DNA from: Liolophura sinensis
Lineage: Eukaryota > Mollusca > Polyplacophora > Chitonida > Chitonidae
NCBI RefSeq assembly: GCF_032854445.1
Contig: NC_088295.1
Coordinates: 43,389,385 to 43,453,384 of the forward strand
DNA length: 64,000 nt
Reading direction: 5' to 3'
The notes beneath the pieces are model-generated. The model had not been told where the DNA came from. It saw nothing but the letters and a program-made list of their open reading frames with translations, and did no database searches. Both the position numbers and the translations under genes were made by a program. Shown one piece after another: positions 41,901 through 47,900 of the stretch (positions are counted from its first letter, which is position 1; each line of letters starts with the position of its first letter).

Positions 41901-44900
41901 ACAGCTGATGCCTATATGAGATAAAAAAAAACGGACCTATTCAGCCCCATACTATAACGATGGTTCAAAAGGTCTATAGATAATTTAGATACTAATAAAT
42001 GTTTTTGTTTCGCAATCATAGAAAAACTGATCTTTATCAGATCTCTTTGTTTTCGTCTGATTCATCGATTTCCTTTGATCTCTTCTTGCAGCTAGAGATC
42101 AAATTCTCCCCTTCTTTTATGATTACCGTCAGGGATGTCAATGATCCTCCAGTTTTTGTTAACTTACCAGGAACAGTTACCACCGAAGAGGTAAGCATCA
42201 AGCATGTACGTCTTAATTTACCATGTCAAACATATATGTCTTAATCAAGCATGTCAAGCATGTATGTCTTAATCAAGCATGTCAAGTATGTACGTCTTAA
42301 TCAAGGACGTCAAACATGTACGTATTAATTGTATCACATACAACACAGCCCTTTGGAATGTGTTTCTCATTCAAGGGGATGTAACTCTTCCATTCTCCAT
42401 TGTAAAATATTTCTGTGTAGCGTTTTAATTATACAAACTAGACACCGGTAGTTATTCCATTTCTTTATAATTTTCATAAAAGTCACACGTTGCACAAAAT
42501 GTTACAATATTGGTGGTAGTTTAAAAGCTGAACAGTGTTTATTGTGGCTAGATTGAAGTCCACTGAATACATCTTCTTTAAAGTTTCATTCTGACTTTTA
42601 AGTCGATTAGCAATATAGTCAATGTGTTTTTCAGCCATGGCAACAAAATAATTAAGCGTATTTGTAATTGCAGGCTGTGCCTCATCAGCGGATAATTTAC
42701 AAAGCCGTAGGTGACGATCCGTATGATGTGGACGATGTGTTCAAACGGAAATGGTACAGGCTTGTGGTAAGCAGCTGCAGTGGAAATCATACTATGACTA
42801 GGCTGTGCAGAAAAAAATCTATTAAACAAGAGCAACGTCATTCAAATGTATTGAGACCTTCAGTGGAAGCCGCACTAATTTATGTCGTTGTATATTCGAT
42901 AAAACAAGCCTTATGAGGGATAAAGCATAAATTATTTTATATATTAAGCTTCATCTTGAATTCCTGATCGCCGTCGTTTCAGTGAAATATACCAGAGGAC
43001 TGTGTTAATTTAATGAATACACCAATCAATCAATCAGTCAATCTGGCCGCTTACAGAATGTGACAGCGGTGGGGACAGATGAACACGCCTCGCAGAAGTT
43101 CTCCGTGGACAGACAGGGTAACGTGATCATAAACGGAGGGGTGGACTATGACAAAGGTCCCAGACAGTACAACCTGGTGATAGAAGTCATTGTGAGTAAT
43201 CCTAGACAGTACAGTCTGCTGATAGAAGTCATTGTGAGTAATCAATAGATAGTACAATATCCTGAAAGAAGTTTTTGTTAGTAATCCTAGACTGTACAAC
43301 CTCCTGATAGAAGGTATTGTGAGTAATCCTAGACAGTACAGTCTGCTGATAGAAGTCGTTGTGAGTAATCCTAGACTGTACAACCTCCTGATAGAAGTCA
43401 TCGTGAGTAATCCTAGACAGTACAACCTCCTGATAGAAGTCATTGTGAGTAATCCTAGACAGTACAACCTCCTGATAGAAGTCATTGTGAGTAATCCTAG
43501 ACAGTACAGTTTGCTGATAGAAGTCATTGTGAGTAATCAATAGATAGTACAACATCCTGAAAGAAGTTTTTGTGAGTAATCCTAGACTGTACAACCTCCT
43601 GATAGAAGGTATTGTGAATAATCCTAGACAGTACAGTCTGCTGATAGAAGTCGTTGTGAGTAATCCTAGACAGTACAACCTCCTGATAGAAGTCATCGTG
43701 AGTAATCCTAGACTGTACAACCTCCTGATAGAAGTCATCGTGAGTAATCCTAGACAGTACAACCTCCTGATAGAAGTCATTGTGAGTAATCCCAGACAGT
43801 ACAGTTTGCTGACAGAAGTCATTGTGAGTAATCCTAGACAGTACAACCTCCTGATAGAAGTCATCGTGAATAATCCTAGACAGTACAGTCTGCTGATAGA
43901 AGTCATCGTGAGTAATCCTAGACAGTACAGTCTGCTGATAGAAGTCATTGTGAGTAATCCCAGACAGTACAGTTTGCTGAAAGAAGTCATTGTGAGTAAT
44001 CCTAGACAGTACAACCTCCTGATAGAAGTCATCGCGAATAATCCTAGACAGTACAGTCTGCTGATAGAAGTCATCGTGAATAATCCTAGACAGTACAACC
44101 TCCTGGTAGAAGTCATCGTGAGTAATCCTAGACAGTACAACCTCCTGATAGAAGTCATCGTGAGTAATCCTAGACAGTACAACCTGGTGATAGAAGTCGT
44201 TGTGAGTAATCCTCGACAGTACAGTCTGCTGATAGAAGTCATTGTGAGTAATCCTAGACAGTACAACCTCCTGATAGGAGTCATTGTGAGTAATCCTAGA
44301 CTGTACAACCTTCTAATAGAAGTCATCGTGAGTAATCTTAGGCAGTACAACCTCCTGATAGAATTCATTGTGAGTAATCCTAGACAGTACAACCTCCTGA
44401 TAGAAGTCATCGTGAGTAATCGTAGACTGTACAATCTGCTGATAGAAGTCATTGTGAGTAATCCTAGACAGTACAACCTGGTGATAGAAGTCATTGTGAG
44501 TAATCCTAGACAGTACAGTCTGCTGATAGAAGTCATCGTGAATAATCCTAGACAGTACAGTCTGCTGATAGAAGTCATCGTGAGTAATCCTAGACAGTAC
44601 AATCTGGTGATAGAAGTCATTGTGAGTAATCTTAGGCAGTACAACCTCCTGATAGAAGTCATCGTGAGTAATCCTAGACAGTACAGTCTGCTGATAGAAG
44701 TCATTGTGAGTAATCAATAGATAGTACAACATCCTGAAAGAAGTTTTTGTGAGTAATCCTAGACTGTACAACCTCCTGATAGAAGGTATTGTGAGTAATC
44801 CTAGACAGTACAATCTGCTGATAGAAGTCATTGTGAGTAATCGTAGACAGTACAACTTCCTGATAGAAATCATTGTGAGTAGTCCTAGACAGTACAATCT

Positions 44901-47900
44901 CCTGATAGAAGTCATCGCGAATAATCCTAGACAGTACAATCTGCTGATAGAAGTTATTGTGAGTAATCCTAGACAGTACAACTTGCTTAAAAATAGAGTC
45001 GTTTTGTATTCGGGATGTGATCTAACTATACCGTCCTCTCTCTAAGTATTGTCTTAGTTTGATGACAAATTGCAACATTACAGGTGTGAATAAATTCCAT
45101 ATAGGTGAATAGGTGTGTTTAGGTGTGAATCAATTATATCTACATTTACCATAACATATTGCTCAAAACTGTTCTTATACCATGTAGCGTTTTAGAACGA
45201 CACCAAGTATAACTAAATTGTGAGTTCAGGGGCCGTGTTGACCAACAGTATATCACTTTTATTCTAAACGAATATTCATCGCTTTAGTTACAGATGAAAT
45301 TAATGGCATGATTATAGAATGCCACACTTCTGAACAACTATCCTGAGTAAGTCGGCTATACTGCTTATTCGCTGCACCAAAGGTCGTCCCTTCAGCAGTG
45401 ACTAGCATTTTTTGGTGTATATGCGAATTCAGATCAATTACATGTTTTACATTTCTACCAATGAAGTGTCACATACCGAAGGCCCGATTTTGACCAATCA
45501 CAGTATTCGTCTTAAGTGTGCATGGCAGACGTAAGATCACATGATCACGCAACATCGGCTCATAAAAACAGCATGAGATATGTGCTGAGATATTTTATTG
45601 GAAAACTCATTTAAGCCAACTAATCTGTAACTGGGTCGAACTAGTTGTAATACCTTTTGTGAAGGTGGCTTCATTGCTGATCGTTGTGTCTCTGTTCAGG
45701 ACGGTGGTTTTCCGCCTCTAAAGAATCAGAGTGTATTGACCGTGTTACTGGAGGACAGCGACGACCAGGGCCCCGCCTTCCAGTACGACGACTACACAGC
45801 CACCGTCATCGGGGAGAAACCCATCATGGTGAGAGGAATAAAGAGAATATTCAGTCAGCCATCAATTCAAACTATTATCTGTTTTTCTCCATTGTTATCC
45901 GGAAGACTGAACCACAGATCAGAAGTCATTGTTATCCAGAAGACTGAACCACAGATTTCTCTCCAGATGAATTCTTGAAAATTTCTCATGTTTATACATT
46001 TCTAGTTCTTTAGTGCTTTGTACTGAACGCTGGAAATCGATCTTGCGATTTCTGACCCTTAACACCCATTTTTATGGATGACGATTGGTTAACATCTGTT
46101 TCGAGGTAACTGTATTTTTGTTACAAAAATGTGTGAATCACCATCAGATCGATTGATTTTACAAGCTGCACCTCATTTGTTTGTGTAATTGTTGTCCAAC
46201 ACTATAGTCAAAACTTTTTGCATACCAAAAGTTGCTGCTGTTTTATGGTCAGGAAAATTCACGTTACAAGCTAATACAGCTCAGAGAAGAAATCAAAATA
46301 TATGCCACAAATACAACCATCGAATGCTGAAGCTAACTTGTGACTTTTATGTCACAGGAAGTGGAGTGTCAGGTGACGGTCCCGCCATTATTCGCCACGG
46401 ACCAGGACCCTGTCAAGAAGTCGCCAATCAATTACACGATCATTTCAGGTAACTTCGTACAACTTACCAGAAAAAAGTAAAAGTAACATATTCACTAAAG
46501 TAATACAAATATCGAAGTGAAGTGTTGTTTTGTGTGGTTCGGATTGTATTGAATGTACATATCAGTTGTACTTAATTACCACAAGAAAAAACTGATCCAC
46601 TATAAACTCATGTCAGTAACACATTTTCTTCGGAAGAACAATGAAATACACGAGTTTTAAACACTTTTGTTCACACGATTCAATCCAACGCCAAGTGCGA
46701 CACTAGAATGCCAATCGTAAACCCCCTCCCCCCCCCCACAATCAAACAGAATTTAAAAACAATCCTCATTATGTAAAACACATCAGCATCAGCAAGAGTT
46801 GGATTCAACTGGTTCAGCGAGGACCGTTCAACAGGTACTCACAATACCTATTTCCTATACGATTTTTATTAACGTCAAAGACTAAATTTTCTAAACCAGC
46901 TTCTCAATCAAATAAACTTGTAAACTATATAAGCGTTTATTTCTGATGATCTGGGTTTCAGGGGACCCTGGAGACTACAGGTATTGGTCTACCTTCTTCT
47001 ACGTGGATAGCGACACAGGTCGGCTGTGTCAGAGCGAGTCCGTACCCAGATCTACGTCCAGAGCAAGTCGCAGATTGGAGAGAAAAGGCTTCCACAACTT
47101 CACATTCACAGTCCAGGTGAAGTGCGTATTATAAACTAAAAAAAGCCTATGGATAATGTTTCCCATGGAAAGTCATGAAGGAAATTCTCTAAAAGCTTCC
47201 TCTTTTAAGAACAAAGAAATGACGCAGCTTCATGAATCAATCCATGAATTTCCGTGTTCCAAAGTCCAAACACAGCTGAGCGTTACACCAGCCGTCCTGT
47301 TTTGTGTTTAACATGCAGCTGTAATGAAATAGCGAGAAAAATTTAGTTTACTATGAGATCATTTCTTGACATGAATGGCCTGGAACATTTGAATGTGTTA
47401 ATATGTGTCATATTCCACACTCTCTGTATATGATCAGTCCATAAATTTGATCAAGTAAAGAACCAATCAGTCAATAGGACAATCAGTCAATCAACCAGTT
47501 GAGGTACATCGCTGGCCAAAATGATTACACAACATGCACGCTGTTAAGCGTGGACGATCAAGCCCTTGTCCTTTGAAGTTGCGTGTTCGAATCCATCTCT
47601 TATCGGTTCGGCTAAGTCAGGCCTCATAAACATGGCCGCCGTGATATAAAAGAAAATATCTTGAACGTGCCAAGTGCCAATCAATCAATCAATCATCTAA
47701 TTAATCAGCCAATGAATTAATCAGAACATCGATAAACTAATTTACTAGTCAGTCAATGAAGTATCCGTCCATTAACCGAGTTTTTTTCTTGTCTTCCTCA
47801 GGCGTACCAGACAGATGACCCACGGAAGGCGGCCACCACGCGACTATTTGTCCACGTACAGGATCGGAACATTCACTCGCCGCAGTTCCGACGACTGCTG

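What the first reader, a model, noticed from the sequence alone, without database searches (positions are those of the whole stretch)
43160..44995. A 5' splice site multiplied about 43-fold next to the real one
Seen: the 42-bp unit is the last part of cadherin exon 7 together with its donor, GTCATT|GTGAGTAATCC. The real junction is unit one and about 35 of about 43 units keep GTGAGT. The spliceosome thus meets dozens of near-identical exon-end/donor copies in 1.8 kb. Using the second donor would add 14 residues in frame (VSN-PRQY-type repeat of the EC2 strand). Reading into the third unit meets an in-frame TAG in the variant ATCAATAG. Inference: the array could buffer, compete for or vary splicing of EC2, or be a neutral expansion tolerated because upstream donors win.
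Basis: partly seen in the sequence, partly recalled or inferred. Interest (0 to 1): 0.88.

Follow-up and report, generated by a model that had tools for sequence, protein, structure and literature searches.

The report
Exon-end minisatellite with multiplied donor sites
In a chiton cadherin gene the end of an exon and its splice signal stand about 43 times in a row at the start of the following intron; similar arrays lie in other genes of this animal and are known from lancelets, and this one is most likely a harmless by-product that the cell tolerates by using the first copy.

Summary
Window 43158-44982 is a 42-bp minisatellite: 43 full units plus a truncated 44th. Unit 1 is the last 34 nt of a 135-nt cadherin exon (43057-43191) and the first 8 nt of its intron, donor ATT|GTGAGT; 36 of 43 units keep GTGAGT, 41 keep GT. 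Joining donor 1 to acceptor 45700 gives a Pfam cadherin match across the junction; adding donor 2's 14 residues loses it. Contig count and two exact contig lengths identify the published chiton genome now called Liolophura sinensis. The array is not unique: 12 donor-spanning arrays with homology-supported exons lie in 7 genes (this cadherin x4, DPY19 x2, a Mot1/BTAF1-like gene x2, and four others). In 8 of 12, the next intact donor would cause frameshift or stop, yet all 12 have downstream copies that pair with U1 as well as the first. So position, not strength, should protect the mRNA (inferred; no RNA seen). I found no clear selection on the copies. This is the 'mirage' class known from amphioxus, here in a mollusc, in several genes, at higher copy number. 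In the cadherin gene arrays cluster at donors (6 of 15, 1.3 expected), not acceptors; wider counts are less clear.

The parts
43057..43191 (+). cadherin exon whose last 34 nt are unit 1 of the array; ends ...[12 protein letters not shown], phase 0
   Evidence: Pfam cadherin match across the splice to 45700
43192..43197 (+). authentic 5' splice site GTGAGT (unit 1); its use is inferred from the protein
43158..44982 (+). 42-bp minisatellite, 43.4 copies; each unit = 34 nt exon end + 8 nt intron start
43234..43239 (+). donor of unit 2; would add 14 residues in frame
43246..43248 (+). first in-frame TAG when reading past donor 2 (ATCAATAG variant unit, one extra base); same TAG variant again at 43541-43543 and 44718-44720
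45700..45828 (+). next cadherin exon ([10 protein letters not shown]...), acceptor TTCAG|GACGG
42198..42329 (+). 28-bp array, 4.7 copies, starting 8 nt after the donor of the cadherin-like exon 42092-42190 (donor-adjacent, not spanning)
51466..51548 (+). 35-bp array, about 2 copies, starting 21 nt after the donor of exon 51316-51445 (donor-adjacent)
52288..52924 (+). second donor-spanning array of the same gene: 67-bp unit, 9.5 copies, from exon 52260-52348 (...[11 protein letters not shown]|)
   Evidence: Pfam cadherin
58619..59347 (+). third donor-spanning array: 19-bp duplication then 75-bp unit, 9.5 copies, from exon 58457-58630 (...[10 protein letters not shown]|)
   Evidence: Pfam cadherin

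Best explanation
It is a 'mirage': a minisatellite founded by tandem duplication of a short stretch that straddles an exon-intron boundary. Here the founder was the last 34 nt of a cadherin exon with 8 nt of intron. Repeated unequal exchange or slippage, sometimes of several units at once, enlarged it to 43 copies. Because every copy lies downstream of the original donor, all copies are intron as long as the spliceosome pairs the first (5'-most) donor with acceptor 45700. The duplications are therefore nearly invisible to selection and drift freely. Shown here: the anatomy, the identity of the exon, the recurrence in other genes, the cost to the protein of using donor 2, and that the copies' donors are not the best-kept part of the unit. 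Inferred: that the first donor is in fact used, that the array is neutral, and how it grew.
For: Unit 1 is coding exon plus donor. Splicing donor 1 to 45700 gives a PF00028 match over residues 40-93, across the junction (23.4 bits, E 7.9e-05, under the curated cut-off of 28.8); with the 14 residues of donor 2 no family is found at E 0.01. 14 of 42 other full units equal unit 1 over the last 10 exon and first 8 intron bases (2 of 42 over the last 15), and 35 of 42 copies pair with U1 at least as well, so strength cannot single out donor 1. Block copying is visible: units 3-4, 10-11 and 38-39 share the same diagnostic variants, and the extra base goes with units 3, 10 and 38. Twelve such arrays in 7 genes; exons supported by Pfam or PDB sequences; in 8 of 12 the next intact donor means frameshift or stop, and 6 of 12 periods are not multiples of 3. 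Donor hexamer window ranks 8 of 42 for conservation. Amphioxus precedents are said to splice normally (PMC3087553 and PMC3902484, passages).
Against: No RNA evidence was available. Donor hexamer identity (0.965) is above the mean of the rest of the unit (0.913), so weak constraint is not excluded. Clustering of arrays at donors is more than tolerance at random sites would give in this gene, so a mutational bias may be needed too. Acceptor-side arrays also seem to occur (L058), and both sides are reported in amphioxus, so a rule 'only donors' is not absolute.
Confidence: 0.8

Rival explanations
1. 5' splice sites are themselves hot spots for tandem duplication (for example through transcription-linked breaks, R-loops or polymerase pausing at the exon-intron border), so arrays start there more often than elsewhere in genes. 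It adds to, rather than replaces, the tolerance explanation.
For: In the cadherin gene 6 of 15 arrays start between one period before and 30 nt after a donor, 1.27 expected, P 0.0003; without the flagged array 5 of 14, 1.23 expected, P 0.003. Spanning a donor: 4 of 15, 0.80 expected, P 0.005; without the flagged one 3 of 14, 0.78 expected, P 0.03. Near an acceptor 1 of 15, 1.25 expected; spanning one 0 of 15, 0.78 expected. DPY19 has donor-spanning arrays on two nearby exons.
Against: Small numbers from a region chosen because it held an array, with exon ends from a rough scoring scheme. One more array ends 31 nt before an acceptor, just outside the 30-nt limit. Base by base, donors are not above intron: 4 of 52 donors against 59 of 600 random intron points lie in local repeats, though that count gives long arrays their full length. 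Genome-wide the donor word in tandem triples gives 1881 hits against 943, 894, 969, 1425 and 1031 for five control words, an excess of 1.3 to 2.1 fold; by a rough estimate of mine random founding with tolerance would give about as much.
Confidence: 0.3
2. The array regulates splicing of this cadherin: it buffers loss of the donor, competes for U1, or supplies an isoform with 14 extra residues.
For: Donor 2 is open in frame and has the same GTGAGT; 36 of 43 donors are intact. Another intronic minisatellite, without splice-site copies as far as the passages say, is linked to multiple alternative splicing in C. elegans (PMC4039745, passages).
Against: Adding donor 2's residues loses the cadherin match; donor 3 and later read a TAG and a frame shift; donor conservation is not special; the sister arrays share neither frame nor unit length.
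Confidence: 0.07
3. The arrays are raw material for new introns and exons: a copy bounded by AG and GT could be recruited as an exon, as proposed for amphioxus globins.
For: Several copies in the 52288-52924 array carry TTTACAG before and GT after an about 50-nt exon copy; the model is in PMC3087553 (passages).
Against: No case of recruitment was seen here. Acceptor-like AGs inside the 42-bp array score low on my rough scale (0.5 to 1.0), though they were not excluded.
Confidence: 0.15
4. Assembly artefact.
For: Tandem arrays are classic assembly problems; contig C99 of this assembly does hold seven COX1 copies at about 15.5-kb steps.
Against: PacBio HiFi reads average 8,347 bp at 14x (PMC11068029, passages), longer than the 1.8-kb array; units differ by substitutions in block patterns; other loci show the same anatomy. 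I did not look at reads.
Confidence: 0.02

Closest known systems
'Mirages' of amphioxus (Adh3, globins BflGb6 and BflGb9, PGBD5, troponin C)
   Same: Minisatellite-like tandem copies of exon-intron boundaries, many with splice signals; block turnover; said not to disturb splicing (PMC3087553, PMC3902484: passages seen).
   Different: A mollusc instead of a cephalochordate; 43 copies here against up to 7 in the passages seen; donor side more often in my sample, whereas both sides are reported in amphioxus.
Intron creation by tandem duplication of AG|GT segments (Rogers; Gao and Lynch 2009; Zhuo 2007; internal tandem repeats in human segmental duplications, PMC2812944)
   Same: Tandem copies that contain splice signals at exon-intron boundaries.
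   Different: There the duplication makes a new intron or isoform; here the copies appear to sit inside an existing intron. Only PMC2812944 was seen (passages); the others I know from recall, the reference list and the text.
Tandem alternative donors
   Same: Several 5' splice sites in a row.
   Different: Those are usually two sites a few bases apart with shown use of both (recalled, not looked up); here dozens of copies at 42-bp steps with no shown use.

Membership tests
Amphioxus-type mirage | Tandem minisatellite whose unit spans an exon-intron boundary | tested here: met
Amphioxus-type mirage | The exonic part is true coding exon of the host gene | tested here: met
   Pfam cadherin across the junction (below the curated cut-off); other arrays
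Amphioxus-type mirage | Copies retain splice signals (many, not all) | tested here: met
   41 of 43 GT
Amphioxus-type mirage | Normal splicing of the host gene despite the copies | not testable with these tools
   no RNA data held; only indirect evidence
Amphioxus-type mirage | Length instability between alleles or cells | not testable with these tools
   one assembly only; the array is at one place
Amphioxus-type mirage | Host is a cephalochordate | tested here: not met
   632 contigs and two exact contig lengths equal those of a published chiton assembly. Taxon is where mirages were found, not part of the anatomy. COX1 was translated with table 5, so its reading of AGA as Ser is assumed by the table and only looks sensible at positions I recall as conserved.
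Intron gain by AG|GT duplication | A new intron absent from relatives | not tested
   no related chiton genome is held here; the intron itself was not dated

The most novel reading that the evidence does not exclude
Across a whole animal genome, exon-intron borders at the 5' splice site act as founding sites for minisatellites, while acceptors hardly do. The asymmetry would be both a mutational hot spot at transcribed donors and a natural, genome-wide demonstration that the first-transcribed of many equal donors is chosen.
Probability: 0.25. Interest if true: 0.75.

Novelty: new member of a known kind. Interest (0 to 1): 0.5.

Why it matters
Each array is a ready-made experiment: many donors in near-identical surroundings in one intron, in conserved genes such as 2-oxoglutarate dehydrogenase, where only the first choice keeps the protein intact. 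Published RNA data from five samples of this chiton could measure how strictly the first donor is chosen. The finding also takes mirages out of the lancelets, shows them at high copy number in several genes, and raises the question why donors seem to be multiplied more than acceptors.

Tried and rejected
Unique regulatory device: rejected as the main reading once sister arrays were found. Coding repeat (the exon continuing through the array): rejected by TAG and extra bases. The long minus-strand ORFs across the array (494, 262 and 242 aa): put down to a 42-bp unit keeping an open frame open; not pursued. Selection on donors in the copies: not supported. Frame selection on unit length: 6 of 12 periods are multiples of 3, 4 expected.

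A clean donor-versus-acceptor contrast from word counts was not obtained: the acceptor word TTTTCAGR in triples is also above its backward control (744 against 278). Samples with flanks: for the donor word, all 18 distinct arrays that I counted in the list (the list stops at C1 6.7 Mb); for the acceptor word, 18 of the 22 distinct arrays that I counted in the list (C1 and part of C2); I left out one that looked degenerate (C1:71076437) and the last three. 6 of 18 donor-word arrays start in an exon supported by homology. 1 of 18 acceptor-word arrays ends in an exon-like ORF of 168 nt without Pfam or PDB match (L058); one more (L057) takes in only a few bases of a tetraspanin-like exon (E 0.003, under the cut-off); in L051 an exon recognised by eye lies beyond the array. 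6 of 18 against 1 of 18 gives a one-sided Fisher value of 0.044, but the two words catch different shares of real sites, so I do not lean on it. Of the 18 donor flanks 8 looked exon-like by eye in the 300 nt before the array; 7 of these went to Pfam (L042 did not); the other 10 were read by eye only. L035 is polycystin-like only at E 0.053 and its repeat hardly enters the exon, so it is not counted. L029 was all array, so its start is unknown.

A first, loose copy count gave false copies and was replaced. The random-position test counts every base of long arrays and is not a fair rate of founding; one search is the better test, though one array entered with a merged period of 266, which raises the expectation. 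Rows dropped: 12 of the 63 automatic exons that were copies in arrays or looked like non-cadherin ORFs; exon 43057 was re-ended at 43191 and exon 42092-42190 added, giving 52. The control word did not complete. Folding, structure prediction and RNA-family searches were not used.
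Full report
What is there. TRF finds a 42-bp array at 43158-44982 with 43.4 copies. Segmenting on a fixed anchor gives 43 full units and a truncated 44th; 40 of the 43 steps are 42 bp and 3 are 43 bp. The consensus unit is TCCTAGACAGTACAACCTCCTGATAGAAGTCATTGTGAGTAA: 34 nt of exon end, then 8 nt of intron. GTGAGT stands in 36 of 43 units and GT in 41 of 43. Units 3-4, 10-11 and 38-39 share a set of variants, and the extra base and the TAG go with units 3, 10 and 38, so the array grew partly by copying several units together. 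A genome search with exon and first units finds this locus alone.

Is unit 1 the real exon end? The exon runs 43057-43191 (135 nt) and the next one starts at 45700. Spliced this way the protein reads ...[15 protein letters not shown]..., and Pfam matches a cadherin domain from residue 40 to 93, over the junction, at 23.4 bits (E 7.9e-05, below the curated cut-off of 28.8); with the 14 residues that donor 2 would add, no family is found. Beyond donor 2 the frame meets TAG 54 nt after the exon end. The exon number and the name EC2 were not tested.

Surroundings. I read 264 kb: the window, and 100 kb on either side. The gene is a very long cadherin; 52 curated exons, by a rough scoring scheme, lie between 42.1 and 102 kb in window coordinates. 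Three more donor-spanning arrays lie in it: 52288-52924 (67 bp), 58619-59347 (19 then 75 bp), and 64791-65045 just beyond the window (106 bp, 2.4 copies; C1:43454175-43454429). Two further arrays start 8 and 21 nt after a donor. In a second gene, a DPY19 homologue with matches from C1:43512609 to 43530151 (Pfam Dpy19 E 6.2e-19 for the two exons joined), two donor-spanning arrays occur (99 bp x 17.1 and 75 bp x 5.7). Testing 40-bp windows centred on the junctions against 3 kb on either side, at 32 or more matches 4 of 52 donors, 0 of 52 acceptors, 59 of 600 random intron points and 6 of 300 exon-interior points are locally repeated. Placing the 15 arrays of the gene at random, 1.27 should start next to or across a donor; 6 do (P 0.0003); without the flagged one 5 of 14 (expected 1.23, P 0.003). 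Next to acceptors 1 of 15 lies, 1.25 expected, and one more misses the limit by one base.

Elsewhere in the genome. I searched for three donor words AGGTRAGT in a row at minisatellite spacing: 1881 hits, against 943 for the word read backwards, and 894, 969, 1425 and 1031 for two other arrangements of the same letters and their backward forms. Hits count overlapping triples, so large arrays weigh more. Counted by eye as distinct arrays in the first 6.7 Mb of C1: 18 for the donor word, 4 for ATGGRAGT, 4 for the acceptor word; for GAGTRATG 10 up to 4.94 Mb, where the donor word has 14. I fetched the upstream flank of all 18. Six of 18 start in a coding exon supported by homology: an ankyrin protein, a Core-2/I-Branching-family enzyme and an iron-hydrogenase-like protein (CIAO3/NARF by recall) by Pfam; 2-oxoglutarate dehydrogenase by PDB sequences (E 3.1e-20); and two exons whose best PDB matches are the same 'helicase-like protein' (E 4e-11 and 1.7e-16; the name BTAF1/Mot1 is recall, and that they are one gene is inferred from their order about 12 kb apart on one strand). 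Of the other 12, one (L035) is weak, one (L042) possible, one (L029) unresolved, and nine show no exon by eye. The acceptor-word set (18 of 22 listed arrays) gave one array running into an exon-like ORF (L058, no homologue found) and one touching a tetraspanin-like exon by a few bases (L057). Acceptor arrays therefore seem to exist; the donor bias is suggestive, not settled.

How it most likely works. Twelve donor-spanning arrays were compared. In each, at least one downstream copy pairs with the U1 5' end as well as the first donor does (35 of 42 copies in the flagged array). In 8 of 12, using the next intact donor would give a frameshift or a stop; in 4 (this one, one DPY19, the Branch-family enzyme, one Mot1-like) it would be open and in frame. 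Since such genes must be spliced correctly, the first donor must usually win, and it cannot win by strength alone. That is inference; no RNA was seen. The donor hexamer in the copies (mean identity 0.965, rest 0.913) is not the best-kept part of the unit (rank 8 of 42). The simplest account is founding by tandem duplication across the exon border, growth by unequal exchange, and tolerance because everything downstream of the first donor is intron. A mutational bias to donors may be added.

Organism. The assembly has 632 contigs and 609.46 Mb, C1 is 96,433,062 and C2 28,395,274 bases. The published chiton assembly GCA_032854445.1 has 632 scaffolds, 609.50 Mb, longest 96,433,062, scaffold_10 28,395,274 (PMC11068029, passages). 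Its authors now call the species Liolophura sinensis (PMC12441733, whole text). HiFi reads of 8.3 kb mean length at 14x make a collapsed or invented 1.8-kb array unlikely.

What is known. Minisatellite-like tandem copies of exon-intron boundaries were named mirages in amphioxus: Adh3 (Canestro and others 2002, not held, known to me through citations and recall), two globin genes, PGBD5, troponin C (PMC3087553 and PMC3902484, passages). Units are 10-160 bp, with up to 7 copies in the passages seen. They are said not to interfere with splicing and are proposed as a source of introns. In the listings of searches, which cover open-access PubMed Central papers only, I saw no report for a mollusc or for a whole genome; a Conus paper that came up holds the word only in its references (PMC3862624, passages), and earthworm metallothionein introns hold minisatellites, but the passages do not speak of copied splice sites (PMC12783039). 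So the array is a new member of a known kind, in another phylum, with the highest copy number I saw and clear recurrence in several genes.

Noticed in passing
window 54704-55030 (+), with neighbouring ORFs 53608-55641: A broken LINE-type reverse transcriptase (Pfam RVT_1, E 9.9e-10) in an intron of the cadherin gene; described only.
   Followed up: partly
window 19410-20681 (+) and 23938-25224 (-): Two convergent, uninterrupted ORFs of 423 and 428 aa that resemble each other by eye (start M.RW..R.R, later DSGY...S..GSDV, EY.LSK.EQLR) and match no Pfam family.
   Followed up: partly
G000:C99: Seven COX1 matches at about 15.5-kb steps: the mitochondrial genome appears as a head-to-tail concatemer, probably an assembly product; C632 (15,209 bp) holds one copy.
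   Followed up: no
window 39595-39731: A perfect (AT)68 microsatellite.
   Followed up: no
window 49229-49421: 39-bp array whose unit ends CACCAG|GTACAC like a donor but lies mid-intron with no exon found beside it; possibly a mirage that lost its exon, or chance.
   Followed up: partly
L058 (G000:C1:91798677-91800077), exon-like ORF at 231-398: Acceptor-side array, 40-bp unit with TTTTCAG|GCCATGTGAG, running into a 168-nt exon-like ORF followed by GTAAGT; no homologue found.
   Followed up: partly
window, e.g. 25282-25512 (-), 56948-57181 (+), 59887-60099 (+): A recurring SINE-like sequence seen as similar translated strings (..GWSWVSPGL....HHNAG..); ARAGORN finds no tRNA in the window.
   Followed up: no
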